A stretch of 38,488 bases of DNA from an uncultured Elusimicrobium sp. Its GTDB lineage: Bacteria > Elusimicrobiota > Elusimicrobia > Elusimicrobiales > Elusimicrobiaceae. Under the pieces are notes generated by a model. The model ran no database searches, was not told the origin of the DNA, and saw only the letters and a program-made list of their open reading frames with translations. A program made the translations under genes and the position numbers. Shown one piece after another: positions 953-14,563 of the stretch (its first letter is position 1; the number at the start of each line of letters is the position of its first letter). The stretch covers positions 1 through 38,488 of the forward strand of contig CACXER010000054.1 of NCBI GenBank assembly GCA_902766765.1, given 5' to 3'.

Positions 953-3112
953 ATGAAATTTGTACTACATTTATTGTTGTCTATGGTTTTGCTTAGCGGC
1001 GGACTTGCTCCGGCGTATTGCCAGCGTGGGGGCGGATTTATTAGAGGTGGCGGCGGAAAAGGCCACGTCGGTAAAAGCCGCTCGCAGCAGCGTATGGGGC
1101 GTAAAGGAAAACATCGCAGTTATCGGACGAAACAGGCCGGGGCCGATATCAGCAGACAATATAATCAAGGCAGGCGTGATATATCGGATATTGGCAACCG
1201 GGTAGCCGATCGGGTCCAACGGGCCGACTACCAAAGCAGTAGAAATCATATCACGTGGCATGAGGCCGCACGCGCAGAATTATACACTCCGCATGAGAAA
1301 CCCATCTCGGCTATGTATGCGGAAGATATTTTCATGGGTAAAATTTCTCTGGCGGACTTAACCCCTCAAGAACAAACCGAGTTTTTACTGGCAGAATTTC
1401 CCGGCCTGGTGGTGGAGGGTGAAATGGTGCCCTCGGCTGAGGTGTGGAAAGATGTTGTTCAAGAATATCGCTCTCGTCTTTTGAACGACCCTACAGCGCA
1501 ACAACAAGCCGATCCGATTTCCTACTGGGCCGAGCAGATGAGTTTGGTTACCAATGTGGGTTTTTTCGGTTCTACCGGAGATGAACTCTTTGTTATGGTG
1601 GCGGCTATGCGAAATTTCCCGCCTGAGTTGCAGCCGTTAACGGACGTAATTACCGTGCGGGCCTTACTCAATTTAAATGCCACCACTGCCCTCAATGATT
1701 TTGTAGACATGCGTTTAGCCCAGGTGGACGGAAAGGGCCGTCCGATGGTGTTGCCTGCGGTGTGGCGGGAATTCCCGTGGGAGATTGTAAAACGTATTCC
1801 CAATTCTCGTTTGGAGCCGGGAGGCGAAGGAAAAGGTATTTTGGTGGACCCGCATGTACAGGTAACGTTGGGACAGTATAACAGTTATAACTTGATGAAT
1901 TTGGACCCTTCGTACACGATGACTTCCAATTTCTTAAACTTGCGTCACGGGATGAATGATAAAATCAATGACTATGCATTTGTCGGGCAAGCCTCCCGCG
2001 GACAATTGGAGCAGGTCTTGCAACACCGCTTGCAACGCAGTTTTGAAGAAGCAGAACTTGTACAAGATAAGTATGGTTGGAATTTATCGGAACATTTCCC
2101 GTCAGCCAGCCCGCAATGGATACGGACGTTGACGGATCAAGGTGAATTGAAAGTGGAAAATATCTACCCGTATGCCCCCGATTATCTAACCGAAGATTTG
2201 CTCTTAGAGTACATGCTTACCAAACATAATATGGAAATCCGCAAATGGTACCCTATTATCAGTGCGCGTAATGTGCGGCTATACAATTCGTTTGCTACGC
2301 TTTACCGGGCGGCAAAACCGGCTATGCATCCGGCAGCGGAAGATATGGCCTGGTTAGCGGGGCAAGTGTCGAAACAAACACAGTATTTAGTGGTCGGCAA
2401 CGTTAACGTAAAGAATTGGGAGAAATATACCCTTCGCCTTATGCAACAATTGCACCGACAACATCCCGGGCGTCAAATTATCTTATTGGATCAGTACGGG
2501 GCTGTTGATTCGGTGTTGTGGACCATGCTTGATGGCCAGCGGAAAACAGGAGAAGATTTACTGAATATTGTAACCGACGTGGCGGAAAGTTCTATCTTAA
2601 AATCGGATATGGATATCAGACGGTTTGAAGATCCGTTGGAAGACGGAATCCTTGTTATTCAAAATGGGGATGGAGCCATTCCGTTTGAAAATACGTTGGA
2701 AGGGTTGCGGATTACTTCTCAGGCCTATATGAATCAAGTGGCACAGGTTCGGGCGGAAAATCCGGATGCGCTCATTGTTTTGTCAGTCAATCATATGTTG
2801 GCCGATTACAGTGTGCCTTATTCATTAGGGAGTAAATTGTACGGTCCCAACACATTTGTAACGCAGTTATCCGTCAATATGATGGAAGGCGGACAAGGAG
2901 AAACCTTGTTTGATGAAGTCATTTCTCCGGCTGAATCTGCTAATTTAGCGGGGGTGGAAACGGATCTCCATTTAACGGAAGATACCCCACTGCTAACCGA
3001 TATGCGGGTGTTGCAATTTAATAATGGTGTATTGCCCGCTCAGGACGGATTGCCGGCTACTCCCATCAACCGAGCTGTCGGGTTTGATGCACGCATTTTT
3101 GTATCCAAATAA
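953..3112 (+). CDS. Secreted Tiki/ChaN-fold paralog P1, active-site motifs lost
   Basis: 719 residues. GGGGAGG lies five bases upstream of the ATG. The N-terminus is a signal peptide probably cut as AYC|QR, followed by a Gly/Lys/Arg-rich basic stretch (residues 25-62). Residues about 118-450 form a block shared only with P2, including YAEDI, GFFG, ELQPLTD and YNSYN-hMNLD segments. Residues about 405-719 are shared with all four paralogs: YP....L..E.L...ML.KHN.E.RKWYPI, then MAWLAGQVS, then the PYSLG strand and a terminal VGFDARI. In P3 the equivalent region carries GEVH and GNAH. Here these positions read GNVN (482-485) and NHML (613-616), so metal-binding or catalytic residues of the ChaN/Tiki/erythromycin-esterase superfamily are absent. 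I infer a secreted non-enzymatic relative. Its own terminator follows, so it may be transcribed apart from P2-P4. The superfamily assignment rests on motifs only. Confidence 0.75.
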   Translation: MKFVLHLLLSMVLLSGGLAPAYCQRGGGFIRGGGGKGHVGKSRSQQRMGRKGKHRSYRTKQAGADISRQYNQGRRDISDIGNRVADRVQRADYQSSRNHITWHEAARAELYTPHEKPISAMYAEDIFMGKISLADLTPQEQTEFLLAEFPGLVVEGEMVPSAEVWKDVVQEYRSRLLNDPTAQQQADPISYWAEQMSLVTNVGFFGSTGDELFVMVAAMRNFPPELQPLTDVITVRALLNLNATTALNDFVDMRLAQVDGKGRPMVLPAVWREFPWEIVKRIPNSRLEPGGEGKGILVDPHVQVTLGQYNSYNLMNLDPSYTMTSNFLNLRHGMNDKINDYAFVGQASRGQLEQVLQHRLQRSFEEAELVQDKYGWNLSEHFPSASPQWIRTLTDQGELKVENIYPYAPDYLTEDLLLEYMLTKHNMEIRKWYPIISARNVRLYNSFATLYRAAKPAMHPAAEDMAWLAGQVSKQTQYLVVGNVNVKNWEKYTLRLMQQLHRQHPGRQIILLDQYGAVDSVLWTMLDGQRKTGEDLLNIVTDVAESSILKSDMDIRRFEDPLEDGILVIQNGDGAIPFENTLEGLRITSQAYMNQVAQVRAENPDALIVLSVNHMLADYSVPYSLGSKLYGPNTFVTQLSVNMMEGGQGETLFDEVISPAESANLAGVETDLHLTEDTPLLTDMRVLQFNNGVLPAQDGLPATPINRAVGFDARIFVSK

Positions 3113-3124
3113 TAGTGAGGTATC

Positions 3125-3159
3125 AAAAGGCCCAAGCGAAAAATGGGCCTTTTGTTCCT
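3125..3159 (+). terminator. Rho-independent terminator after P1
   Basis: A perfect 10-bp stem (3125-3134 with 3144-3153) and a TTTTGTTCCTT tail, beginning 12 bases after the P1 stop. It separates P1 from the P2-P3-P4 run. The left arm contains the right copy of the 14-bp direct repeat (3124-3137). Confidence 0.75.
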
Positions 3160-3220
3160 TGTGAGGTGTTGGCATATATTACTAAAATATAAAGAACATC
3201 TATTTTTAAATTGTATTTTT

Positions 3221-5509
3221 ATGAAGAAAGTTATTCCAATTTTAGTGGGGGCGGGATTACTTGTCGCCTCGCCGTCAGAGGGGTATGCTCAACGAGGAAA
3301 AGGATTTTTATCGTCGGGGCCGGCGGTTGCGGGCCGTAAAAGTTGGCGCACGAAGAAAACACTTTCCAAAATTGGGCAACAGTACGGAAAGCATAATAAC
3401 GGCAATTATATTGCGGCTCAATTAAATAAAAATGTTACGATTGGTACCGTGGCCGCCAAGCACTTAAATTTGCAATCGCAGCCGGGGCTTATTACCGGCA
3501 AATGGAAAAAAGGTTGGCATGCGGCCGTTACGAATATGTTGCCGCAGGAGATCCGAGCCGATTTGCCTTTGCCATATGCGCAAGATATTCTTTTAGGTAA
3601 TTTACCGTTGGAAATCCTTTCGGATGTAGAAAAGGAAAATTTATTCCTTTCCCAGTTCCCTATTTTAGTATTGGAGGAAAACTGGGTGCCGACCAATTCC
3701 CAATGGGATTATGCCCTTCGGTATTACCACAGTGTGCTATTTGATAAACTCCCGGAAACCGAGCCGGCCGATGAACTCAATCGGTGGGCCAAAAAAATGG
3801 CGGCGATTACCAACTTGGGGTTTTTTGGAAAACTGGAACAGGGCCAATGGATAGAAGTAGCCGCCACGCAACAATTCCCGTTGGAATTGCAACCGTTTAC
3901 GGATTTGATTGTCATGCGGGCGTTGCTCAATATAGGGGAAGAATCTTTTATTGACGACTTTGTATACCATCGTTTAAGCGCCGTTGATAAAAAGGGCCGT
4001 CCGCTTAAATTGCCGGCGGTGTGGAATGATTTTCCGGATTGGGTATTGTCCTATATCCCGGAGGGCCGCATTGAACAACCGGCTCCGCCTGCAAAAAAGA
4101 GTGCGGATCAAACTACGTTGTTGCGACGGGTAAAAAATTATTTTCAGCGTCAAAAGGCGCGTTTAGTTAAACCAAAACCGAAACCGGGTGATGAGGCCTT
4201 GCAGTATGCTTTAGGCAGATATAACAGTTATAATATTTTGAATTTGGATTCGTCCCCGGAAATGACGCAACTGTATATGGAATTGCAACACGGGATGGTT
4301 GATAAATTTTCCGATTTGGTGTTCGGAAATTCCCCGAATTTGGTAGAACAATTGGAATATCGGCTTTCTCGCAGTTACGAAGATGCCCAACTGTTTAATG
4401 AACGGCAGGATTTGCCCGCTTTATTCCCATACGTATCCCGAGAATGGATTTACTGGGATTTGGAGGGGGGAGTAGAAAAATTGTATCCGAATGCAGCCAG
4501 ATTTTTACCGGATGAGTTGGTGCCACTTTACATGCTTATCAAACACAATTTGGAAGTACGGAAATGGTGGCCGATTGTTCAACAATGGCAGATAGACGTG
4601 TTGCAGGCCACGGAACAATTACAAAAAATTCAGGTGCCGGTAACGCACGATTCATCGTTGGATATACGCTGGTTGGCGGGGCAAATTACGCCGCAGATCC
4701 AGCATGTATTAGTTGGTGATACGGCCGCGGCTCCTACTTTTTTGAAAGATGTGTTTGAATTGGCACGCGAATTGCGTAAACGCTATCCGAACCGGGACAT
4801 TGTTTTGCTGAGTCAGCACGGTTTCGGGTTACCGGAGGGCGTGTCGGATGATCCGGAAGTCCGCCGGATGTGTAAATCTCAGCATGTGTTGAAGCATTTG
4901 GTACAAGCCGAAAAAGATGGCGTGTTGGCTCAAACTGTACGCGACCAATATATTCAAACCGAGTTGTTGCGTGATCCTTTTTATGAGAATTCCACGGGGC
5001 TCCCCACCTTGGCGGCATTTGAAGAACCGGCCTCGTTAAATGGTGCCGGAGGGAGATTGGGACAGGAGCGTTTTGCGGAAACTTTTGAAGGTTTACGTTT
5101 GGTTTCGGATGCTTACGTGGAGCAGTTGGAAGCATTACGCGATAAACACCCCGATGCACTATTTATTGTGGCGGCCGATGCCAGACAAGTGGATTATGCG
5201 GTTCCTTATTCGTTAGGTAGTTATTTGGCTGGGCCGGACACGTATGTGGCGCTGCTGGGGGTACAACGATTTAGTTCGATATTGGATGCAAAGTCGCTCA
5301 GTTTGTTTGAACGGAATTTTTATCCCTTTGAAATGACGCGCGTGTTGCGAAGCGGACAGTTCGGTTCAAACGGCCCGGAAGATGCTCGCTTTTTGTTTGA
5401 TAGAGTATTGCAATTTAAGGGCGATGTGCCCACGGGTGAATTTGGTCATCCGGTTCGGGCTTCGTGGTTAGTTGGGTTTGATGTACGTATCAACCGATCG
5501 ATGGAGTAG
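3221..5509 (+). CDS. Secreted Tiki/ChaN-fold paralog P2, active-site motifs lost
   Basis: 762 residues from the ATG at 3221. An upstream in-frame ATG at 3143 lies inside the P1 terminator hairpin, and only the 3221 start gives a clean signal peptide (MKKVIPILVGAGLLVAS...GYA|QRGKG). No clear Shine-Dalgarno precedes it. Layout matches P1: a basic linker, a P1/P2-specific block (residues about 118-460, with LPYAQDILLGNLPLE, NLGFFG, FPLELQPFTDLI and RYNSYNILNLD) and the shared C-terminal domain (about 420-762). A Lys/Pro-rich insertion (about 285-325) is unique to P2. The motif positions that are GEVH and GNAH in P3 read GDTA (499-502) and DARQ (653-656), so both are lost. The terminal strand is VGFDVRI. 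P3 begins 10 bp downstream, so P2-P3-P4 look like one operon. No function is known to me. Confidence 0.75.
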   Translation: MKKVIPILVGAGLLVASPSEGYAQRGKGFLSSGPAVAGRKSWRTKKTLSKIGQQYGKHNNGNYIAAQLNKNVTIGTVAAKHLNLQSQPGLITGKWKKGWHAAVTNMLPQEIRADLPLPYAQDILLGNLPLEILSDVEKENLFLSQFPILVLEENWVPTNSQWDYALRYYHSVLFDKLPETEPADELNRWAKKMAAITNLGFFGKLEQGQWIEVAATQQFPLELQPFTDLIVMRALLNIGEESFIDDFVYHRLSAVDKKGRPLKLPAVWNDFPDWVLSYIPEGRIEQPAPPAKKSADQTTLLRRVKNYFQRQKARLVKPKPKPGDEALQYALGRYNSYNILNLDSSPEMTQLYMELQHGMVDKFSDLVFGNSPNLVEQLEYRLSRSYEDAQLFNERQDLPALFPYVSREWIYWDLEGGVEKLYPNAARFLPDELVPLYMLIKHNLEVRKWWPIVQQWQIDVLQATEQLQKIQVPVTHDSSLDIRWLAGQITPQIQHVLVGDTAAAPTFLKDVFELARELRKRYPNRDIVLLSQHGFGLPEGVSDDPEVRRMCKSQHVLKHLVQAEKDGVLAQTVRDQYIQTELLRDPFYENSTGLPTLAAFEEPASLNGAGGRLGQERFAETFEGLRLVSDAYVEQLEALRDKHPDALFIVAADARQVDYAVPYSLGSYLAGPDTYVALLGVQRFSSILDAKSLSLFERNFYPFEMTRVLRSGQFGSNGPEDARFLFDRVLQFKGDVPTGEFGHPVRASWLVGFDVRINRSME

Positions 5510-5519
5510 GAGTAGAAAT

Positions 5520-6752
5520 ATGCGTTGTTGGAAATTTTTATTTATTTTATTATGTTTTAGTGGTGTGATGGCCTACGGACAGAGAATGCCGTTTAAGGTA
5601 AATGCTAAGCCATCTGTCCATGTAGGGCATCATGCACAAAGTAAGAAGTCCAAGGCCTCCAAGCGCTTGGCGGCGTTGTCCCCTGCGCAGTTGTCTGAAC
5701 GTGTGCAAACTACGTACCGCCGTGCTAAAAAAATGCAAGATCATTACCCGGAAGTGATAGACTGGGGCGGACCGAGCAGGCAGTATATGCCGAGTTCTTC
5801 TCCGTTGACGCCGGATGCGCTCAAGTTTGCTAAATTAAATCCGAAGATCTTATATCCGCACTTGCCTGTATTATCGGCAGAACAATTAGCCCAATGCTTT
5901 TTAATACAGCATAATTTGGAACTTGTCAAATGGATGCCTAAACAGGAAGAATTACGAAAGTATGTGCAAGAGCATATGTCCTTATTGCGAGCCCATCAAG
6001 TGAAAGTTCCTGTGGCGGCACATCAAGAAATGGCTTGGCTGGCCCGGCAAGTATCACCGGAAACACAATATTTGCTACTTGGGGAAGTCCATGCACCCGG
6101 CATTGGGGACACGTTACCTGATTTGTTGCGCGAATTACGGCGTATGCAAAAGGACCGTCAGATTTTCTTATTTACGGAATTTCTACCCGAACGGCAAGAA
6201 TGGGGGCACTTGGATGTCGGCACTTTGTATTTTCCGGATCAAAAGTCGATTTGGAATACCGCCTACCTCCAGCGTATTCCCGTTATTGGGTTAGAGCCCT
6301 ATTTTATCTATCAGACTCAGCCGCAACTGATGGAGCGGGATCCTGCCCACCAAGGCCGTACCATGCCGGGGAATAATATTTGGCAATCGTTAGCCGGGGT
6401 GCGTGTACGCAATCAGCGTTGGATGCAAATTTTGCAAGAATACCGCGCGCAATACCCCGAGGCCTTGTTTATTGTCTATGCCGGTAATGCACATGTATCG
6501 TATTCGGAACCTTATTCTTTGGGGAATCAGTTGGCCAAGCAAAATACGCTTGTGGCTTTACTATATCCCGAACAAGATATATGGCAGACGTCCGGTCGGG
6601 CTTCTGTTTTGACCAGTAAATTTGATGCTTGGACGGATGGTAAATTTGTTAACGATAATATCGTGCAATTTGACTTGCCGGTTTTTTCGCGTGTCGTTGG
6701 ATTTGATATTCGTATCCGGCTTCCCGGAACGGTGTTTGTAATTGATGAATAA
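5520..6752 (+). CDS. Secreted Tiki/ChaN-fold paralog P3, motifs intact
   Basis: 410 residues from the ATG at 5520. I chose this over the in-frame ATG at 5472, which overlaps P2, because it has GGAG/AGGAG upstream and opens a signal peptide (MRCWKFLFILLCFSGVMAYG|QR). It lacks the large N-terminal block of P1/P2 and goes from a Lys/Ser-rich linker to the shared domain (about 110-410). The superfamily hallmarks are complete: LLLGEVH (G188, E189, H191), a second acidic strand FTEFLPE (E220), IPVIGLEP (253-260) and YAGNAHVSY (G322, H325). This is the pattern of ChaN (haem-binding uptake), TraB and Tiki (metalloprotease-like) proteins, so this member could bind haem or metal or be a hydrolase. Which of these applies cannot be told from the sequence. 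It ends VGFDIRI plus 13 residues. Confidence 0.75.
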   Translation: MRCWKFLFILLCFSGVMAYGQRMPFKVNAKPSVHVGHHAQSKKSKASKRLAALSPAQLSERVQTTYRRAKKMQDHYPEVIDWGGPSRQYMPSSSPLTPDALKFAKLNPKILYPHLPVLSAEQLAQCFLIQHNLELVKWMPKQEELRKYVQEHMSLLRAHQVKVPVAAHQEMAWLARQVSPETQYLLLGEVHAPGIGDTLPDLLRELRRMQKDRQIFLFTEFLPERQEWGHLDVGTLYFPDQKSIWNTAYLQRIPVIGLEPYFIYQTQPQLMERDPAHQGRTMPGNNIWQSLAGVRVRNQRWMQILQEYRAQYPEALFIVYAGNAHVSYSEPYSLGNQLAKQNTLVALLYPEQDIWQTSGRASVLTSKFDAWTDGKFVNDNIVQFDLPVFSRVVGFDIRIRLPGTVFVIDE

Positions 6753-6775
6753 TTGTTTGAACTGAGAAGGAAAAT

Positions 6776-7972
6776 ATGAAGAAGATAGTAGTTTTATTGT
6801 TGGCTGTCAGTTGTTTGCTAGGAGTTTGTGCGGGGGATATGTATGCCCAGAAAGGACGGATTCACAGATATCGCGCCCAAGGGAAAAAATACAAAAAACC
6901 GTCCCGTCCCGAAAAGCGAGCCAAGTCACATCCTTTAACCAACTTTCGCCAGGCCAGTACAATTACTGCCCAGGAAACAGAGGCAGGACTGCAACTTGGC
7001 GATTTCGTTCCGCCGGCCTCGCAATTTACGATAGGGAAGAGAAAATCGGTGTATGAGCCGTTAGCGGGTTTGCGTTCGCATGCGCTGTATCCTCAATCCA
7101 ACTTGCCAAGTACGCAAGAATTGGAGGAATACTTTTTAAATCAGCATAACTCGGAAATTGTAAAATGGATGCCTATTTTACAAGCCCATCAAAAAGCGTT
7201 GGAGGAAAATTTACCGCAGTTGCGTGAAGCCCAACAAATAATAGACCATCCCGCTCGCCTGGATATGAAATGGCTGGCAGGGCAACTTCCCGACGAGGCC
7301 CGCTATTTGCTGTTGGGAGAAAAAGACCACGGTGTATACGCGGTACACCAACAAGTCAAATATTTGCTGGGAGAGTTACACCGCCGTTATCCGCACCGGA
7401 AGATTATTCTATTTACGGAATTTTTACCTCAAGGCCGCTCGTGGATATATGCGGCGCGTTATCCCGGCTTGTGGGGGTATTTGCCCTTATTTTTAGCCGG
7501 GCAAAAAGTGCGTATTCCGGTAGTCGGTTTGGAACCGAAGTTTGTATGTGAAACCCAACGGACGATGGTGGAAGATCCGGAGCAACAAACCGGGGGACTG
7601 ATGTGGGCGTCCATTGAGGGGGTTCGTATCCGCAATGAAAGATGGCTCGCACGTTTGGAAGCGGCCCGCCGTCAATATCCCGATGCATTGTTCGTAGTCT
7701 ATACCGGGGCCGGCCACGTAGATTATAACGAGCCCTATTCATTGGGCCGTTCGCTACAAGGGCCGCAAACACAAGTGGTGTTGTTCCATCCCAGATATCG
7801 GGTAGAAAACGGACGGCTCAAAGACTTGATTACGCCGTTTGATATGGTAACCCAAGGAGAATTTTCTGACCGCATTGTACGGTTTAGTTCGGATGAAATG
7901 GCCAAATTAGCCGGATTTGATATTCAAATCGGTGTACCGGAGTTATTAGAAACGATGTTCTTTGATGAGTAA
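6776..7972 (+). CDS. Secreted Tiki/ChaN/erythromycin-esterase-like paralog P4
   Basis: 398 residues, 23 bp after P3, with GAGAAGG upstream. The signal peptide is MKKIVVLLLAVSCLLGVCAG..MYA|QK, followed by a Lys/Arg-rich linker (27-52). The shared domain spans about 100-398. Its first motif is GEKDHG (181-186): the His is one residue later than in P3's GEVH, matching the GE-xx-HG spacing of erythromycin-esterase-like proteins. The second motif is intact (TGAGHVDY, G311-H314), as are FTEFLP (E215) and IPVVGLEP (247-254). It also has extra His residues near the first motif (H191). The C-terminal strand is AGFDIQI. It is probably the last gene of the P2-P4 operon, which ends at the terminator at 7994-8024. 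Activity or substrate cannot be assigned. Confidence 0.75.
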   Translation: MKKIVVLLLAVSCLLGVCAGDMYAQKGRIHRYRAQGKKYKKPSRPEKRAKSHPLTNFRQASTITAQETEAGLQLGDFVPPASQFTIGKRKSVYEPLAGLRSHALYPQSNLPSTQELEEYFLNQHNSEIVKWMPILQAHQKALEENLPQLREAQQIIDHPARLDMKWLAGQLPDEARYLLLGEKDHGVYAVHQQVKYLLGELHRRYPHRKIILFTEFLPQGRSWIYAARYPGLWGYLPLFLAGQKVRIPVVGLEPKFVCETQRTMVEDPEQQTGGLMWASIEGVRIRNERWLARLEAARRQYPDALFVVYTGAGHVDYNEPYSLGRSLQGPQTQVVLFHPRYRVENGRLKDLITPFDMVTQGEFSDRIVRFSSDEMAKLAGFDIQIGVPELLETMFFDE

Positions 7973-8082: not shown

Positions 8083-8115
8083 TTGCACATACTCATTTTA
8101 CAAGGAGGAGTACGT

Positions 8116-8685
8116 ATGAAAAAGGAAAGTTGTTTGTTGGACTTTTTAAACGCAAAAGGTTTTACGCTAATAGAATTATTAGTGGTAGTGCTCATCATTG
8201 GTATTTTAGCGGCGGTGGCGATGCCGCAATATCAAAAAGCCGTAGAAAAATCTCGCGCCACGCAAGCCCTGGCGGTACTTAAAACAATCGGACAAGCGCA
8301 AGACGCGTATTACATGGCAAACGGGGAATATGCCCAATCGTTGGATGAATTGCCCGTAGATATTTCGTGGACGGGAACGGAAAAATGGACCGCAAGTAAT
8401 TATCCTACCTACTCTAACGGGCAATGGTCTTTGCAAGTGGTTCGTTGGACGCCGACCACTTGTGGGATCTATATGGGCCGGTTGACCGGTAAATATGCGG
8501 GAGCGGGATTTATTTATTGGCTTAAAAATCCTTATGATGATATTGAGGAAGGAACTCTGTCTTGTGCCGAACGTTTATCCAATGGGTTGACGTATAACGG
8601 TGTTAGTGGCAGTTATTGTGGAAAAGTTATACAGGTTTTCGGTAACCGGATAAATGTAAGTGCATTGAATGTTTGGCGCATGTAG
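8116..8685 (+). CDS. Type IV pilin-like protein a (G|F prepilin leader)
   Basis: 189 residues from the ATG at 8116, preceded by AAGGAGG; the earlier in-frame ATG at 8083 overlaps the promoter. A 15-residue leader rich in Lys and Cys ends in AKG|FTLIE, a class III signal for prepilin peptidase cleavage after Gly and N-methylation of Phe, with Glu at +5. The hydrophobic assembly helix is followed by the usual YQKAVEKSRATQAL, and then YYMANGEYAQSLDEL, a motif shared by all five window pilins. The C-terminal head is unique, with three mature Cys that could form a D-region disulfide. The protein may be a major or minor pilin or a type II secretion pseudopilin; no assembly genes are nearby. It is monocistronic with its own promoter. 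Confidence 0.85.
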   Translation: MKKESCLLDFLNAKGFTLIELLVVVLIIGILAAVAMPQYQKAVEKSRATQALAVLKTIGQAQDAYYMANGEYAQSLDELPVDISWTGTEKWTASNYPTYSNGQWSLQVVRWTPTTCGIYMGRLTGKYAGAGFIYWLKNPYDDIEEGTLSCAERLSNGLTYNGVSGSYCGKVIQVFGNRINVSALNVWRM

Positions 8686-8706: not shown

Positions 8707-9171
8707 TTAATTCATTCCCCATGTTCCTGCTGTTAAATACGTGGCAAACGCAAGCCATAGTCCGTACGGTGCCAGCAGCCACGCAGCAGTGCGGTTGATT
8801 TGCCAAAAAGCGCGGAATAAAAATCCCAGTTCTGTCAGCATGGCTACAATTAAAATCAGCCCGCCCGTCAAACTGTGTGCCCCGAAAAATACCGGAGTCC
8901 AACACGCATTTAACGCCAGTTGCCCTACAAATAACATCATCGCATGTCCGTGTATTTTTTCGCGGAATGTCAAAAAAGCACTCGTCCCCAATAAAATATA
9001 TAGCGCGCCCCATACAAGACTAAATAAAAAATCCGGCGGCGTTAGCGGCGGGTGGGCTAAGGTGCGGTACCACGCCATATTGTTAAACACATAGGGGATG
9101 CCGAATAAACCGGGCAGTTGGCAAATTACCAGCCAAACGACGAATTTTACTAACATAGTTCCGTTTTTCAT
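8707..9171 (-). CDS. tspO: TspO/MBR (tryptophan-rich sensory protein) family membrane protein
   Basis: 154 residues with five predicted transmembrane helices, the typical TspO length and topology. Family landmarks are present: WY..LAHPPLTPPD (residues about 34-48), F..VWGALYILLG, NACWTPVFFG (the N..W..FF motif) and APYGLW.AFATYL near the C-terminus. TspO proteins bind porphyrins or cholesterol-like ligands in the outer or inner membrane and influence tetrapyrrole and stress responses. The role in this organism is unknown. It is convergent with pilin a (22 bp between stops) and has no strong Shine-Dalgarno before its ATG. Confidence 0.85.
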   Translation of the reverse strand: MKNGTMLVKFVVWLVICQLPGLFGIPYVFNNMAWYRTLAHPPLTPPDFLFSLVWGALYILLGTSAFLTFREKIHGHAMMLFVGQLALNACWTPVFFGAHSLTGGLILIVAMLTELGFLFRAFWQINRTAAWLLAPYGLWLAFATYLTAGTWGMN

Positions 9172-9295: not shown

Positions 9296-9679
9296 ATGGA
9301 TACCAAACTCATTAAAGAAGTAACCGATTGGTTGAAAACCACCGATTTAGCCGAATTTTGTTATGAAAAAGACGGCAACTGTATTGAAGTAAAAACCCAA
9401 GAAGCCCTGCCCGAGCCGGCTGCGTTTGCTTGTTCGCTTACGGCGGTAACGGCTCCCGCTATCGGCATTTATCACGCCGCGGATAAAGGGCAAAATATTG
9501 CCCTTACCGAAGGTCAACTCATCGAACAAGGGGCGCCGTTGGGTGTTGTGGAAACGGTTTCCAAAAAGCATAAAATTACTGCGCCGGTTTCCGGTAAATT
9601 GCGCGTGATTACCGTGCGAGAAGGGGCCGTCGTAGAATTTGGTTTGCCACTCTTTTTTATTGAACCGCGGGAGTGTTAA
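9296..9679 (+). CDS. accB: Biotin carboxyl carrier-like protein lacking the biotin lysine
   Basis: 127 residues with the AccB layout: a short N-terminal helix, a Pro/Ala linker (about 36-50), then a biotinyl/lipoyl beta-barrel (about 51-125; TAPAIGIYH...EGQLIEQGAPLGVVET...ITAPVSGKL...VVEFGLPLFFIEP). It aligns without gaps to E. coli BCCP through this region, but the AMKM biotinylation motif is replaced by TVSKKHK (87-93). The acceptor lysine position is Ser89, with Lys at 90 and 91. It is shorter than E. coli AccB (156). The next gene is accC, starting directly after the stop (TAA-ATG), so it should be the carrier subunit. Either an adjacent Lys is modified, or this copy does not carry biotin and a second carrier exists elsewhere. 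Confidence 0.75.
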   Translation: MDTKLIKEVTDWLKTTDLAEFCYEKDGNCIEVKTQEALPEPAAFACSLTAVTAPAIGIYHAADKGQNIALTEGQLIEQGAPLGVVETVSKKHKITAPVSGKLRVITVREGAVVEFGLPLFFIEPREC

Positions 9680-11068
9680 ATGGGAACCGATTTGTCCTTT
9701 ACGCCTTTTCAAAAAGTACTTATTGCCAACCGTGGCGAAATCGCCCTGCGCATTATCCGCACGTTAAAAGAGATGAATATTAAATCGGTGGCTGTTTACT
9801 CACAGGCCGACCGTAACAGTTTGCATGTGCGCATGGCCGACGAAGCCGTTTGTATCGGCCCGGCCCGCTCTGCGCAAAGTTATTTAAATATAGACGCTAT
9901 TGTTACCGCCGCTAAATTGACCGGAGCCGATGCCGTTCACCCGGGGTATGGTTTTCTATCCGAAAATGCCGATTTTGCAAAAGCCGTTACCGAGGCCGGA
10001 ATTACTTTTATCGGGCCGGATGCCAATTCTATTTCTTTGTTAGGTGTTAAATCTACCGCGCGTGAAATTGCCGTCAAAGCCGGTGTGCCCGTTACCCCAG
10101 GCTCCGATGGAGTGGTTGGTAAAAATTACCACGCTATTGCACGCAAGATCGGTTTTCCCGTCATGATTAAAGCCGCACTGGGCGGTGGCGGAAAGGGAAT
10201 GCGCGCTTGCTTTAACGAAGAAGATTTAGACCGTATGATGTCCACGGCCCAGGCCGAGGCGCGCGCCAACTTTGGCGACGACCGCATGTATTTGGAAAAA
10301 CTCGTTTTGAATCCGCGCCACATTGAAGTCCAAGTGGCTGCCGATAATTACGGTAATGTGGTAGCATTTGCCGAGCGCGATTGCAGTTTGCAGCGTCGCC
10401 ACCAAAAATTAGTAGAGGAATCCCCCAGCCCGTTTGTGGACGCGGCTACCCGTGTTAAATTGCAAGAAGCCGCGTGCAAACTGATTGAGGCGGCCAACTA
10501 CCGGGGGGTTGGTACGGTGGAGTTTTTAATGGCGCCGACCAAAGAATTTTATTTCATGGAAGTAAATACCCGCTTGCAAGTGGAACATCCGGTAACGGAA
10601 GAAGTCTGCGGGCGGGATTTAGTCAAACTGCAAGTTCAAATTGCCCAAGGCGAAAAATTACCCTTTACCCAAAAAGAAGCCGCCGTTATCAAATGCCACG
10701 CGATCGAGCATCGTATCAACGCCGAGGATAGCGAGCATAATTTTGTGCCGTGCCCGGGTACGGTTTCGGAGTGGATTCCGTCGGGCGGGTTGGGCGTACG
10801 GGTGGATAGCCACGTATATGTCGGCTATGCAATTCCCACGTATTACGATAGTTTGATTGCTAAACTGATTGTAACGGCCCCCGAACGTCCCCAATTGTTG
10901 GCACGCAGCCGCCGCGCGCTAGGCGAATTTGTGGTCGGTGGTGTAAAAACCACGTTGCCGTTTCATAAGCGCATTTTAGATAATGCCGATTTTATTGCCG
11001 GAGATACCGACACCGGACTTATTGAGCGTATGCTCAAGCAAGAGAAGGAACATGAAAGCCAAAACTAA
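9680..11068 (+). CDS. accC: Biotin carboxylase subunit of acetyl-CoA carboxylase
   Basis: 462 residues (E. coli AccC 449). It catalyses ATP-dependent carboxylation of biotin on the carrier protein, the first half-reaction of malonyl-CoA synthesis. It has the N-terminal domain ([19 protein letters not shown]), the ATP-grasp glycine loop [10 protein letters not shown] (about 165-174), the [12 protein letters not shown] signature, and the catalytic segment [19 protein letters not shown]. It is adjacent to the accB-like gene, while accA and accD are not in the window. The 3' end overlaps rfaE2 by 17 bp, indicating a single mRNA. All catalytic signatures look intact, so the oddity in its partner is not simple decay of the locus. 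Confidence 0.93.
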
Positions 11069-11516
11069 GATTATGGGGCCGCGCACCTTAAAGAAATGGG
11101 TGGAAGCGGCGCGTGCAAAAGGGCAAAAGATAGTTTTTACAAACGGATGTTTCGATATTCTACATGCCGGACACGTGAGTGTGTTGGAATTTTCACGCAG
11201 TAAAGGGGATTTACTTGTCGTGGGACTCAATAGCGACGCATCGGTCAAACGCTTGAAAGGTCCGTCGCGCCCCGTCAATTCCCAGGCAGACCGCGCGCTT
11301 GTTTTGGCCGCGTTGGAAAGCGTGTCTGCCGTGTGCGTGTTTGAAGAAGATACACCGTACAATTTGATTAAACTTGTCCGCCCGGATGTGCTCGTCAAGG
11401 GTGGCGATTATAAACCGTCGGAAATCGTCGGTCGTGAATTTGCAAAAAAAGTGGTGCGCTTTGCTTTATTAAAAGGCCGCTCTACTACAAACATTATTAA
11501 AAAGGTAAGCAAGTAG
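11052..11516 (+). CDS. rfaE2: D-glycero-beta-D-manno-heptose 1-phosphate adenylyltransferase (HldE C-terminal type)
   Basis: 154 residues from the ATG at 11052, with AGAAGGAA just upstream; longer readings would run through accC. It is a single nucleotidyltransferase domain with [13 protein letters not shown] (HxGH ATP-binding motif, about 28-40), [22 protein letters not shown] and the C-terminal RSTTNII signature of the RfaE2/HldE adenylyltransferase. It makes ADP-heptose for the LPS inner core. The heptokinase domain fused to it in E. coli HldE is absent and must be encoded elsewhere. It implies a Gram-negative envelope with heptose-containing LPS. Confidence 0.9.
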
Positions 11517-11548: not shown

Positions 11549-12739
11549 ATGGCTGATATTTTTGAGAAGTGCAGAAATTACAAGGACGCTAAAATTGCCA
11601 TGCGCATGGGCATTTACGGTTATTTCCAACCGATTTCTTCCGCCCAAGGGCCGGAAGTAATCTTAAACGGTAAAACCTATATCATGGCGGGTTCCAACAA
11701 CTATTTGGGGCTGGCCAATGACCCGGAAATGAAAAAAGCCGCCGTGGAAGCCGTGCAAAAATACGGTACCGGGGTGGCCGGCTCGCGCTTACTCAACGGA
11801 AATACACAACTGGCCGATAATTTAGAAAAAAAGTTAGCCCAATTCAAACGCAAACAAGCCGGTTTGTTATTTGCTACCGGATACCAGATGAATTTGGGGG
11901 TTGTGTCGTGTTTGATTAAAAAAGGCGACTATGCCATTGTGGACAAATTAGACCACGCCAGTATTTTGGACGGTGTGAAAATGTCCGAAGGCGAAATGGT
12001 CCGCTTTAAACACAACGATATGGCCGACCTGGAACGTGTGCTTGCTAAACTGCCTGAAGATGCCGGCAAACTGATTATCATTGACGGTGTGTTTAGCATG
12101 GAAGGCGACATTTGCCCGCTACCCGATATCGTTAAAATCGGTAAAAAATACGGTGCACGCATTATGGTGGACGACGCCCATGCCACGGGTATCATCGGCA
12201 AAACGGGCCGCGGCACGTGCGAGTATTTCGGTTTGGAAAACGGCGAAGTAGATTTAATCGTCGGTACGTGTTCCAAGACGTTTGCCACCGTGGGCGGTTT
12301 TGTGGTGGGGGATGAGGATATTATCCACTACATGCGCCACAACGCGCGCAGTCAGATTTTTTCTGCTTCTATGCCGCCGTCTTGTATTGCCTCTATTACC
12401 AAGGCGTTGGAACTGATTGAAAACGATACTTCCCGTCGCGATAATTTGTTCCGTTTGACGGCTAAACTGAAAAAAGGGTTGGAAGATTTAGGGTATGACC
12501 TCGGCACCAGCACGACGCCGATTTTACCCGTGCATGTAGGCAGCAATGAAAATTGTTTTAAGATGTGGCGCGCCTTGCACGAAATGGGCATTTTTGCCAA
12601 CCCGGTTATCAGCCCCGCGGTGCCGCCCGGCCGCGCGCTCATGCGTCTTACGCTCATGGCCACGCATACCGATGAACACGTGCAAAAAATTATTGACGCG
12701 TTTGCCCAGGCGGGCCGTGCGGTAGGTATTATTAAATAA
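11549..12739 (+). CDS. spt: Alpha-oxoamine synthase, serine palmitoyltransferase-like
   Basis: 396 residues, PLP fold type I, with AGAGGA upstream. Family features include MGIYGYFQPI near the N-terminus, GSNNYLGLA, YGTGVAGSRLLNGN, LDHASILDG (the His stacking on PLP), DGVFSMEGD, VDDAHATG (Asp/His contacts) and GTCSKTFATVGGF with the Schiff-base Lys. The IYGYFQPI start, SRLLNG-N and FSASMPPS segments resemble bacterial serine palmitoyltransferases more than BioF (7-keto-8-aminopelargonate) or Kbl (glycine acetyltransferase), but all four subfamilies are close. If Spt, it condenses serine with an acyl-CoA or acyl-ACP to 3-ketosphinganine, the first sphingolipid step. Its position after accBC and before a GNAT-fold gene of the Spt-linked type supports a lipid role. 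The terminator at 12750 follows. Confidence 0.72.
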   Translation: MADIFEKCRNYKDAKIAMRMGIYGYFQPISSAQGPEVILNGKTYIMAGSNNYLGLANDPEMKKAAVEAVQKYGTGVAGSRLLNGNTQLADNLEKKLAQFKRKQAGLLFATGYQMNLGVVSCLIKKGDYAIVDKLDHASILDGVKMSEGEMVRFKHNDMADLERVLAKLPEDAGKLIIIDGVFSMEGDICPLPDIVKIGKKYGARIMVDDAHATGIIGKTGRGTCEYFGLENGEVDLIVGTCSKTFATVGGFVVGDEDIIHYMRHNARSQIFSASMPPSCIASITKALELIENDTSRRDNLFRLTAKLKKGLEDLGYDLGTSTTPILPVHVGSNENCFKMWRALHEMGIFANPVISPAVPPGRALMRLTLMATHTDEHVQKIIDAFAQAGRAVGIIK

Positions 12740-12749
12740 AGTATTTTCA

Positions 12750-12779
12750 AAACCCCGCTTTGTGCGGGGTTTGTTTTTT
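12750..12779 (+). terminator. Rho-independent terminator after the spt-like gene
   Basis: A perfect 9-bp stem (12750-12758 with 12764-12772), 5-base loop, then GTTTTTT. The next gene starts 11 bp beyond, so its expression depends on read-through or an internal promoter. Confidence 0.85.
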
Positions 12780-12789
12780 GGGAGTGCGT

Positions 12790-13896
12790 ATGCAAATCAA
12801 AGAAATTTCTTCCCCATCTGATGTTCAAGCGTTTATTGATTTTCCGTTTACCTTATATAAAGACAATTCCTATTGGGTGGGCGAATTAAAAGCCGACACG
12901 AAACACTTATTAGATACAAAAAATCCGTTTTGGGCCACGGCTACGCGCGCACTTTTTATGGCGTACGAGGGGGAAAAACCCCTCGGGCGCATTATGGCAC
13001 TAGTCAACCGGGCCCATAACGAATATCATCGCGAAAATATCGGCTTTTTTGGTTTTTTTGATTGTGTAAATGATGAAAAAGTGTCCGCCGCTTTATTTTG
13101 CGCGGCGCAAGATTGGCTCAAGGCGCAAGGGGTGGAAAAAATGCGCGGCCCGGCGAGCCCGTCCAGTAATCACGTATACGGGCTGCTGGTAGACGGGTTT
13201 GACAGTATGCCCGCTATTATGATGCCGTATAATTTTGCTTATTATGCGGATCTGATTGAAAAAGCCGGACTTACAAAAGCCAAAGATTTACTTGCTTTTT
13301 ACCGCACGAAAGACGATAAATTCTCTGAGCGGTTTTTGAAAGTGTGTGCCCGGTGCGAACGTGCCAAAGGCATTACGCTGCGCCGGTTGAATTTGAAAAA
13401 GATTGACGAAGAAGCCGAAATTATCCGCAAGATTTACAACGCCGCCTGGGCGGAAAATTGGGGATTCGTGCCGCTTGATCAGCGCGGTATGGCCGATATC
13501 GTCAAAGAGTTAAAGCCCATTATCCGCACGGAAGGTACGTGTGTGATTGAAGAAAACGGAGTGCCGGCCGGATTCTATATTTGTATTCCCAATATGAATC
13601 ATGTACTGAAAATTTTGCGCGGCAGCCTAAAAAATCCGTGGCGAGTATTAAAGGCGTTATGGACGTGGAAACATATTAAAGATGCGCGGCTGATTATGCT
13701 GGGCGTCATGCCGGAATTTAGAAAACGCGGACTGGATTTGATTTTGATTAAACACATTGTTACGCACGGCGTAGCCGTATGGGATGCGGCGGAACTTTCC
13801 TGGGTGTTGGAAGACAACGCCGGCATGATCCGCGGGATAGAGGAGTGCGGTTGTCACCCCTACAAACGCTACCGCGTGTACGAAAAAAATTTATAA
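12790..13896 (+). CDS. GNAT-fold acyltransferase-like protein, possible bacterial ceramide synthase type
   Basis: 368 residues from the ATG at 12790 (GGGAG upstream); the in-frame ATG at 12760 lies inside the terminator. The order of motifs matches a conserved family of about 370-residue GNAT-like proteins often found near bacterial serine palmitoyltransferase genes: FI.FPF.LYK.N.YWV (about 18-35), FLAYEG-type GRI.ALVNRAHNEYH (about 70-90), IGFFGFFDC, MRGPASPS, GLLVDGFDSMP, and a C-terminal acetyltransferase core IMLGVMPEFRKRGLD. From memory, Caulobacter bCerS (ceramide synthase) is annotated as such a GNAT protein; that this is the same family is inference. The neighbouring spt-like gene is the main support. 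It ends at a 17-bp hairpin. Confidence 0.6.
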   Translation: MQIKEISSPSDVQAFIDFPFTLYKDNSYWVGELKADTKHLLDTKNPFWATATRALFMAYEGEKPLGRIMALVNRAHNEYHRENIGFFGFFDCVNDEKVSAALFCAAQDWLKAQGVEKMRGPASPSSNHVYGLLVDGFDSMPAIMMPYNFAYYADLIEKAGLTKAKDLLAFYRTKDDKFSERFLKVCARCERAKGITLRRLNLKKIDEEAEIIRKIYNAAWAENWGFVPLDQRGMADIVKELKPIIRTEGTCVIEENGVPAGFYICIPNMNHVLKILRGSLKNPWRVLKALWTWKHIKDARLIMLGVMPEFRKRGLDLILIKHIVTHGVAVWDAAELSWVLEDNAGMIRGIEECGCHPYKRYRVYEKNL

Positions 13897-13915: not shown

Positions 13916-13953
13916 AAAACCCCGTTTTCGGAATTGTCCGAAAACGGGGTTTT
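13916..13953 (+). terminator. Strong hairpin terminator after the GNAT-fold gene
   Basis: A perfect 17-bp inverted repeat (13916-13932 with 13937-13953), 4-base loop ATTG, with A- and T-runs at the stem base so it could work in both directions. Confidence 0.9.
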
Positions 13954-14047: not shown

Positions 14048-14563
14048 ATGAAAAAGAAAAGTTGTTTGTCGGGCATTTTACGTACAAAAGGGTTTACGCT
14101 GATTGAACTCCTCGTAGTCGTACTCATCATCGGCATACTCGCCGCGGTAGCCGTGCCGCAATATCAAAAAGCGGTGGAAAAAGCACGGATGAGCGAAGCC
14201 ATTGGTATGTTATCCACTATTGCCAAAGCGCACCAAGTTTTTTATATGGCTAACGGGCGGTATGCTTTTTCTAATGACATTGGTTTATTAGATATAGAAG
14301 TTCCGGGAGAGGTAGATAATTCCTGGGGCACAGGGCGCATTCGTACCAAGTATTTTATTTATTCACCCAATGTGGCTACAGGAAATGGTCCGGGGCCCAT
14401 GTTGGCTTTTGCCCAACATGTTCCGCAAGAAGGTGTCGCAGAGATTTATCAATTATTTATTTCCCAAGCGGAGCCAAACCGGGTTCAATGTTCCTTGTAT
14501 GATGGGGCCAACGCTGTACAACGCAAATTGTGTCAAAAATTAAACGCTAAAGGCACGCTATAA
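14048..14563 (+). CDS. Type IV pilin-like protein b (G|F prepilin leader)
   Basis: 171 residues, with GGAGGG upstream of the ATG. The leader MKKKSCLSGILRTKG|F is 15 residues like that of pilin a, including the Ser-Cys-Leu segment. The assembly helix carries Glu at +5 and is followed by YQKAVEKARMSEAIGML and FYMANGRYAF. The head domain is short, with two Cys (both near the C-terminus). The assembly helix is the same as in pilin a while the head is unrelated in detail, as expected for duplicated pilin cassettes. It stands alone between the GNAT-fold gene and purB; nothing suggests co-transcription with either. Its product could be a pilin or a pseudopilin. Confidence 0.85.
   Translation: MKKKSCLSGILRTKGFTLIELLVVVLIIGILAAVAVPQYQKAVEKARMSEAIGMLSTIAKAHQVFYMANGRYAFSNDIGLLDIEVPGEVDNSWGTGRIRTKYFIYSPNVATGNGPGPMLAFAQHVPQEGVAEIYQLFISQAEPNRVQCSLYDGANAVQRKLCQKLNAKGTL

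What the first reader, a model, noticed from the sequence alone, without database searches (positions are those of the whole stretch)
11549..13896. Possible sphingolipid genes in an Elusimicrobium-like genome
A serine-palmitoyltransferase-like oxoamine synthase is followed by a GNAT-fold protein matching the family frequently found beside bacterial Spt (proposed ceramide synthase type), in a run with accBC and an LPS heptose gene. Sphingolipids are known from Bacteroidetes and some Proteobacteria; their presence in this lineage would be notable, particularly for a gut bacterium.
Basis: inference. Interest (0 to 1): 0.55.

Follow-up and report, generated by a model that had tools for sequence, protein, structure and literature searches.

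The report
Likely ceramide synthesis genes in Elusimicrobiota
This gut bacterium from a little-studied phylum carries a conserved set of genes that very probably makes the ceramide backbone of sphingolipids, membrane fats best known from animals and from Bacteroides.

Summary
Observation confirmed. An oxoamine synthase (11549-12739) is followed 50 nt later by a tandem-GNAT protein (12790-13896, ATG start). The synthase falls in the serine palmitoyltransferase (Spt) clade, apart from BioF, Kbl and HemA. The GNAT is a full-length homologue of E. coli BL21 YghO (36%), which PMC9386255 pairs with the Caulobacter N-acyltransferase needed for ceramide. The third gene is elsewhere in the genome: a profile of reductases found beside Spt in other bacteria hits G000:C67:118-1059 at 3.8e-81, next best 3.2e-34. 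Synthase and GNAT are adjacent in 57 of 61 relatives. bioB is over its cut-off in 0 of 61, so a BioF role is unlikely. In the phylum the GNAT is in 191 of 247 genomes; five genomes of 0.5-0.8 Mb keep cerR-spt-GNAT in order, and two 99%-complete ones have a decayed or lost spt but intact GNAT and cerR. Best reading: a ceramide pathway of known type in Elusimicrobiota. No lipid has been measured; substrate, order of steps and head group are inference.

The parts
11549..12739 (+). Spt-type alpha-oxoamine synthase, 396 aa (predicted serine palmitoyltransferase); Lys243 aligns with the PLP lysine of the GTFSK motif of solved SPTs
12790..13896 (+). tandem-GNAT N-acyltransferase, 368 aa (predicted bacterial ceramide synthase, bCerS/CerS, YghO family)
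12750..12772 (+). terminator-like hairpin with T run between spt and bcerS; a similar hairpin is in 28 of 30 distinct genomes of the genus that were tested
11052..11516 (+). hldE C-terminal (heptose-1-P adenylyltransferase) domain gene, steady neighbour of spt in the window's order
9680..11068 (+). accC, biotin carboxylase, steady neighbour
9296..9679 (+). accB-like biotin carboxyl carrier protein, steady neighbour (mostly 1.6-1.9 kb from accC outside the genus)
13916..13953 (+). strong terminator-like hairpin after the GNAT gene (17 pairs); probable end of the unit

Best explanation
The two genes encode the first two enzymes of a bacterial ceramide pathway. Spt condenses L-serine with a fatty acyl thioester to 3-ketosphinganine (PLP bound to Lys243). 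The tandem-GNAT protein transfers a second fatty acyl group to the amine. The reductase (CerR) encoded elsewhere in the genome (G000:C67, L033 109-1068, minus strand, downstream of genes that I read as pgsA and pgpA) reduces the 3-keto group, giving dihydroceramide. Shown here: sequence family, clade, predicted fold, conserved neighbourhood, and a complete set of three genes in the genome. Inferred: substrates, order of N-acylation and reduction, location, and any head group.
For: Spt: best NCBIfam model SerpalmtaseCFB 507.9 bits, against 400.8 for the BioF/Kbl subfamily model and 391.5 for BioF; best solved chains are SPTs (8guh, 3a2b), 1.6e-120; in one clade with all 5 SPT reference rows, 95/98 support. 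GNAT: 36% over its whole length to BL21 YghO, which PMC9386255 lists as the E. coli counterpart of Caulobacter CC_1154; tandem-GNAT model pLDDT 93.6 with N-acyltransferases as structural neighbours (best Z 23.6; N-myristoyltransferases 15.4-15.8). Linkage: 66 of 80 GNAT loci from named genomes carry a synthase of this type and 40 of 80 also a CerR-like SDR in the held DNA; leaving out the 13 Elusimicrobiota loci it is 54 of 67 and 40 of 67. CerR: (271 bits against 117 for the next place); 53 of 61 relatives have a match of 219 bits or more; the candidate groups with E. coli, Rahnella and Sphingomonas CerR, 88/85. Biotin synthase over cut-off in 0 of 61.
Against: The synthase is below the curated cut-off of all three SPT models (507.9 of 640, 396.8 of 500, 349.2 of 670), as it is for BioF and Kbl. 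The tree tool warns of long branches among the BioF and proteobacterial SPT rows. CerR is not linked to spt in this genome. A strong CerR match (339 bits, G111) occurs in a genome in which no GNAT (1e-20) and no synthase match (1e-90) was found, and it falls in the same group as the candidate, so CerR-like genes are not specific. A strong CerR is missing in 8 of 61 relatives; 5 of these fit assembly gaps, 3 are unexplained. GNAT homologues of 25-27% identity (Vescimonas, Chloroflexota) have no synthase annotated beside them. No AasR-like gene was found in the 80 loci; that script could not see ACPs shorter than 90 aa, and the own genome was not searched for either. I have no lipid data.
Confidence: 0.82

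Rival explanations
1. Same three enzymes, but the synthase uses alanine, glycine or cysteate, so the product is a 1-deoxyceramide or a sulfonolipid-like lipid rather than a serine-based ceramide.
For: Unique 1-deoxysphingolipids are reported from euxinic Black Sea water (PMC11334938 abstract). The solved cysteate-C-fatty acyltransferase 28eh is also a homologue (8e-71).
Against: Solved SPTs are far closer (1.6e-120) and share the NPV-SPAVP and R-LMATHT segments with it.
Confidence: 0.12
2. The synthase is a BioF or Kbl homologue and the GNAT an unrelated acetyltransferase; no sphingolipid is made.
For: Scores for BioF and Kbl models are high (391.5 and 368.6 bits; BioF/Kbl subfamily 400.8). 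The AU test does not reject a grouping with the 3 long-branched BioF rows (p 0.08).
Against: The tree places it in the Spt clade; grouping with Kbl is rejected (p 0.006); bioB over cut-off in 0 of 61 against 7 of 14 controls; many relatives carry a separate second synthase of about 40% or less identity, and 7 of the 8 such rows in the tree group with Kbl, 93/80; the pair recurs with a CerR-like gene in other phyla.
Confidence: 0.03
3. Spt and CerR act as stated but this GNAT mainly reacylates scavenged or recycled sphingoid bases, being expressed apart from spt.
For: Terminator-like hairpin between spt and the GNAT in 28 of 30 distinct genomes of the genus. Two relatives keep the GNAT and cerR with spt decayed or gone. 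PMC11324152 (passage) raises salvage because cerS lies in its own transcription unit in the bacteria it covers.
Against: Adjacency to spt in 57 of 61 and the tight cerR-spt-GNAT order elsewhere in the phylum fit de novo synthesis. Only 17 nt lie between the hairpin and the GNAT start.
Confidence: 0.1

Closest known systems
Caulobacter / E. coli BL21 ceramide genes (spt, cerR, bcerS=CC_1154/yghO; PMC9386255, PMC11087976, passages read)
   Same: Same three enzyme families: Spt 40% to BL21 Spt, GNAT 36% to YghO, CerR candidate 28% by BLASTP and 31% over residues 1-280.
   Different: In the window no acpR or aasR was seen beside the genes. bcerS lies directly after spt (in PMC11324152 cerS is said always to be in a separate operon). 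cerR is away from spt, after pgpA. accB-accC-hldE(C) is the upstream neighbourhood.
Bacteroidota SPT (solved 8guh/3a2b, recalled to be of Sphingobacterium; Bacteroides BT_0870)
   Same: Closest Spt subgroup by best HMM and PDB match; Parabacteroides homologue 47%.
   Different: Below the NF047600 cut-off. The Bacteroides 3-ketosphinganine reductase BT_0972 is a short SDR (about 31 kDa, PMC9278070 passages); its sequence was not compared here.
Spt-like genes of 38 Black Sea phyla (PMC11334938, abstract and passages)
   Same: Same approach and same gene trio. Its clade B logic (Spt homologues with bCerS and CerR nearby) covers this case.
   Different: The string elusimicrob does not occur in its main text. 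Its supplements were not read.

Membership tests
Bacterial Spt clade of alpha-oxoamine synthases | Falls in one clade with Spt references, outside BioF, Kbl, HemA | tested here: met
   95/98, 46 of 63 rows (21 of 55 linked rows used). Only E. coli Spt of the 5 SPT rows is one for which I read experimental use; the others were labelled by me from homology and context
Bacterial Spt clade of alpha-oxoamine synthases | PLP lysine and flanking active-site segments of solved SPTs | tested here: met
   DHASI, DDAH, GT-SK, NPV-SPAVP, R-LMATHT aligned with 8guh/3a2b
Bacterial Spt clade of alpha-oxoamine synthases | 3-ketosphinganine formation from serine and acyl thioester | not testable with these tools
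   needs an assay
NF047600 SerpalmtaseCFB (narrow Bacteroidota equivalog) | curated score cut-off 640 bits | tested here: not met
   507.9 bits; not filed under this narrow model
bCerS / YghO / CC_1154 N-acyltransferase | full-length homology to YghO | tested here: met
   36%, residues 1-368, 7e-77; alignment A1. Caulobacter CC_1154 itself was not compared
bCerS / YghO / CC_1154 N-acyltransferase | GNAT-type fold | tested here: met
   tandem GNAT model, pLDDT 93.6, best Z 23.6
bCerS / YghO / CC_1154 N-acyltransferase | genetic linkage to spt | tested here: met
   57 of 61 adjacent; synthase in the held DNA of 66 of 80 named loci, 54 of 67 without Elusimicrobiota
bCerS / YghO / CC_1154 N-acyltransferase | N-acylation of a sphingoid base | not testable with these tools
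   needs an assay
CerR | best match in the genome to a profile of spt-linked reductases | tested here: met
   C67, 3.8e-81 against 3.2e-34 for the next
CerR | groups with known CerR in a tree | tested here: inconclusive
   88/85 with E. coli, Rahnella, Sphingomonas and G111; deep forks open
CerR | linkage to spt in this genome | tested here: not met
   different contig, after pgpA-pgsA; linkage is also said to be absent in Bacteroidota (PMC11334938 passage)
BioF (biotin synthesis) | biotin pathway present (bioB over cut-off) | tested here: not met
   0 of 61 against 7 of 14 controls
BioF (biotin synthesis) | groups with BioF in a tree | tested here: inconclusive
   not in the best tree, but the AU test does not reject it (p 0.08)
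Kbl (threonine catabolism) | groups with Kbl | tested here: not met
   AU p 0.006

The most novel reading that the evidence does not exclude
Ceramide synthesis is an old, near-universal trait of most Elusimicrobiota lineages, kept even in genomes of 0.5-0.8 Mb. In at least two relatives that lost spt, bCerS and CerR are kept to acylate and reduce sphingoid compounds taken from a eukaryotic host or neighbour, which would be a bacterial sphingolipid salvage pathway.
Probability: 0.3. Interest if true: 0.7.

Novelty: new member of a known kind. Interest (0 to 1): 0.5.

Why it matters
Gut bacterial sphingolipids are discussed mainly for Bacteroidota (general knowledge and the papers listed). A small-genome gut lineage of another phylum with a conserved ceramide gene set is a further possible source and a simple model, since the own genome shows only one oxoamine synthase (87% complete). 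The pattern across the phylum (present in the window's order and in other classes, not found in the 20 listed genomes of sister families of its own class, spt decayed or gone in two genomes) makes the open question of bacterial sphingoid salvage directly testable.

Tried and rejected
BioF, Kbl and HemA readings of the synthase were tested by HMM, tree, AU test for BioF and Kbl and the bioB survey; rejected, with the reservation that the AU test for BioF gave p 0.08. Bacteroides BT_0972 as a CerR reference: I did not obtain its sequence; the Phocaeicola and Prevotella SDRs that I fetched pair with each other in an unresolved part of the tree, not with the candidate. The idea that the hldE-like domain makes a sphingolipid head group was dropped for now: the partner kinase domain (TIGR02198) is in the genome over its cut-off, so ordinary heptose synthesis is enough. 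The idea that synthase and GNAT form one plain operon was weakened by the hairpin. Literature for Elusimicrobiota with sphingolipids: 38 papers, 20 listed; 6 papers; 33 papers, 12 listed; 0 papers with serine palmitoyltransferase; listings only, apart from passages of PMC7203096 (first 300,000 characters held; about Sphingobacteria) and PMC3098273 (another lipid synthase type in E. minutum). No report was seen in these, and that library lacks most subscription papers (Stankeviciute 2022 not held). The AOS tree used 63 of 97 selected rows: every third of the 52 linked rows from L095-L164 plus 3 plasmid rows; the Elusimicrobiota rows were a hand-picked part. L110 and L138 were left out before thinning because their synthase frames were short.

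Full report
Observation. The window holds an accB-like gene, accC, an hldE C-terminal domain gene, a 396-aa oxoamine synthase and a GNAT protein in tandem on the plus strand. The GNAT starts best at the ATG at 12790 (368 aa), not at the TTG that lies in a hairpin. The genome (G000) has 1.36 Mb in 102 contigs and is 87% complete; one oxoamine synthase was found in it. Named near relatives of the GNAT are Elusimicrobiaceae/Elusimicrobium MAGs.

The synthase. Its best model is the Bacteroidota SPT model (507.9 bits, cut-off 640), ahead of the BioF/Kbl subfamily model (400.8), BioF (391.5) and Kbl (368.6), all below their cut-offs. The best solved chains are SPTs (8guh, 3a2b), 1.6e-120, with the PLP lysine and the substrate segments aligned. 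In a maximum-likelihood tree of 63 rows it lies in a 46-row clade (95/98) with all 5 SPT reference rows and the synthases that sit beside this GNAT in other phyla. Seven of the 8 second synthases of its relatives group with Kbl (93/80). The tool warns of long branches among BioF and proteobacterial SPT rows. Forcing the Elusimicrobiota rows together with Kbl is rejected (p 0.006); with the 3 BioF rows p is 0.08. Biotin synthase is over its cut-off in 0 of 61 relatives and in 7 of 14 controls, so a BioF role has no pathway to serve.

The GNAT. It matches E. coli BL21 YghO over its whole length (36%, 7e-77). PMC9386255 (passages) lists yghO and Caulobacter CC_1154 as the acyl-CoA N-acyltransferase (aca) needed for dihydroceramide, in a BL21 cluster whose genes I also see in the record. 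The predicted structure (pLDDT 93.6) is a tandem GNAT; solved neighbours are MAB_4324, glucosamine N-acetyltransferase and mycothiol synthase (Z 21-24), with N-myristoyltransferases at 15.4-15.8. A shared fold alone shows no function.

Linkage. Leaving out 13 Elusimicrobiota loci (L085-L094, L123, L131, L162; L094 is titled only bacterium but falls among them in the tree), it is 54 and 40 of 67, in Nitrospirota, Ignavibacteriota, Zixiibacteriota, Gemmatimonadota, Myxococcota and others. Fourteen of the 80 have no synthase in the held DNA; in 7 of these the GNAT lies within 1.7 kb of a contig end on its upstream side. Rubrobacter and Streptomyces plasmids carry synthase-GNAT-SDR in tandem. None of the Elusimicrobiota loci has the reductase nearby.

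The third gene. A profile of 17 spt-linked reductases, none from Elusimicrobiota, finds one clear place in the own genome, C67:118-1059, at 3.8e-81; the next is 3.2e-34. It lies after pgsA, pgpA, exbB/exbD and tonB-like genes (names are my reading of the translations); the same order is seen in G027, the only other genome whose ORFs I listed there. A match of 219 bits or more is in 53 of 61 relatives (32 of 37 in the genus, 21 of 24 outside it); G031 has the weakest, at 219.7 bits, on a contig other than that of its tonB-like gene. Of the five misses in the genus, two contigs end within 0.6 kb after tonB and three assemblies show no tonB-like gene either, so these fit gaps; the misses G045, G059 and G060 are unexplained. 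In a tree the candidate groups with E. coli, Rahnella and Sphingomonas CerR (88/85), while deep forks stay open and a genome without spt (G111) has a homologue in that group.

Conserved neighbourhood. Of 24 loci of the window's order that I checked, 19 hold all five genes, each time in the order accB, accC, hldE(C), spt, GNAT; L046 lacks the GNAT and four short loci (L003, L004, L015, L031) show only part. Outside the genus the accB-like gene is more distant in sequence (28-41%) and, in 13 of 14 such loci, 1.6-1.9 kb away from accC. Synthase and GNAT are adjacent in 57 of 61 relatives. In the genus a GC-rich hairpin with a T run lies between them in 28 of 30 distinct genomes (L083 repeats L009 and is left out); 1 of 8 loci of the order outside the genus (L040, -10.0) and none of 10 loci from other classes passed the same threshold. 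PMC11324152 (passage) states that cerS always lies in a different operon from spt in the bacteria it considers; here they are neighbours, but perhaps with attenuation.

Distribution. In 247 genomes drawn from the phylum the GNAT is in 191 (1e-20) and a synthase match at 1e-90 in 188 (two of these, G191 and G215, are weak and probably Kbl). The 20 listed genomes without GNAT are all of other families of the window's class; 36 more without a match are not listed. In 30 genomes that I chose, the CerR profile scored 254 bits or more in 20, G111 included. Five tiny genomes (G142, G149, G151, G154, G167; 0.5-0.8 Mb, 80-85% complete) have cerR-spt-GNAT in that order. In G061 and G077 (99% complete) GNAT and cerR are intact and neighbours, while only scraps of spt remain between them in G061 and nearly nothing in G077; their one other synthase is 31-32% identical to the spt of a near relative.

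Verdict. This is most likely a ceramide synthesis gene set of known type in a phylum for which I saw no report in the library searched. It is a new member of a known kind, widespread rather than exotic. Chemistry remains to be shown.

Noticed in passing
L165 5713-8112 (G077) and L166 7883-10701 (G061): Two 99%-complete genomes of the same phylum keep intact bCerS-like GNAT and cerR but have lost spt (a decayed remnant in G061): a possible natural case of sphingoid salvage.
   Followed up: partly
G111, L178 6444-7403: Strong CerR-like gene (339 bits) in a genome of the same class where no GNAT (1e-20) and no synthase match (1e-90) was found; CerR-like genes are not specific to the pathway.
   Followed up: partly
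window 12750-12772; L003-L031: GC-rich terminator-like hairpin between spt and bcerS in 28 of 30 genomes of the genus, with variable loop sequence.
   Followed up: partly
window 8113-8685 and 14048-14563; L033 7635-8144: Prepilin-like genes with the same N-terminal core ([20 protein letters not shown]) scattered singly, two of them flanking the TspO-accB-GNAT stretch.
   Followed up: no
window 8707-9171 (minus): TspO/MBR family gene divergent from accB, in that place in the 5 genus loci with enough context.
   Followed up: no
L033 9271-9810: A second BCCP-like gene on the contig that carries the CerR candidate (my reading of the translation).
   Followed up: no
window 953-7972: Four large ORFs (719, 788, 426, 398 aa) in a row with no Pfam match at 1e-5.
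   Followed up: no
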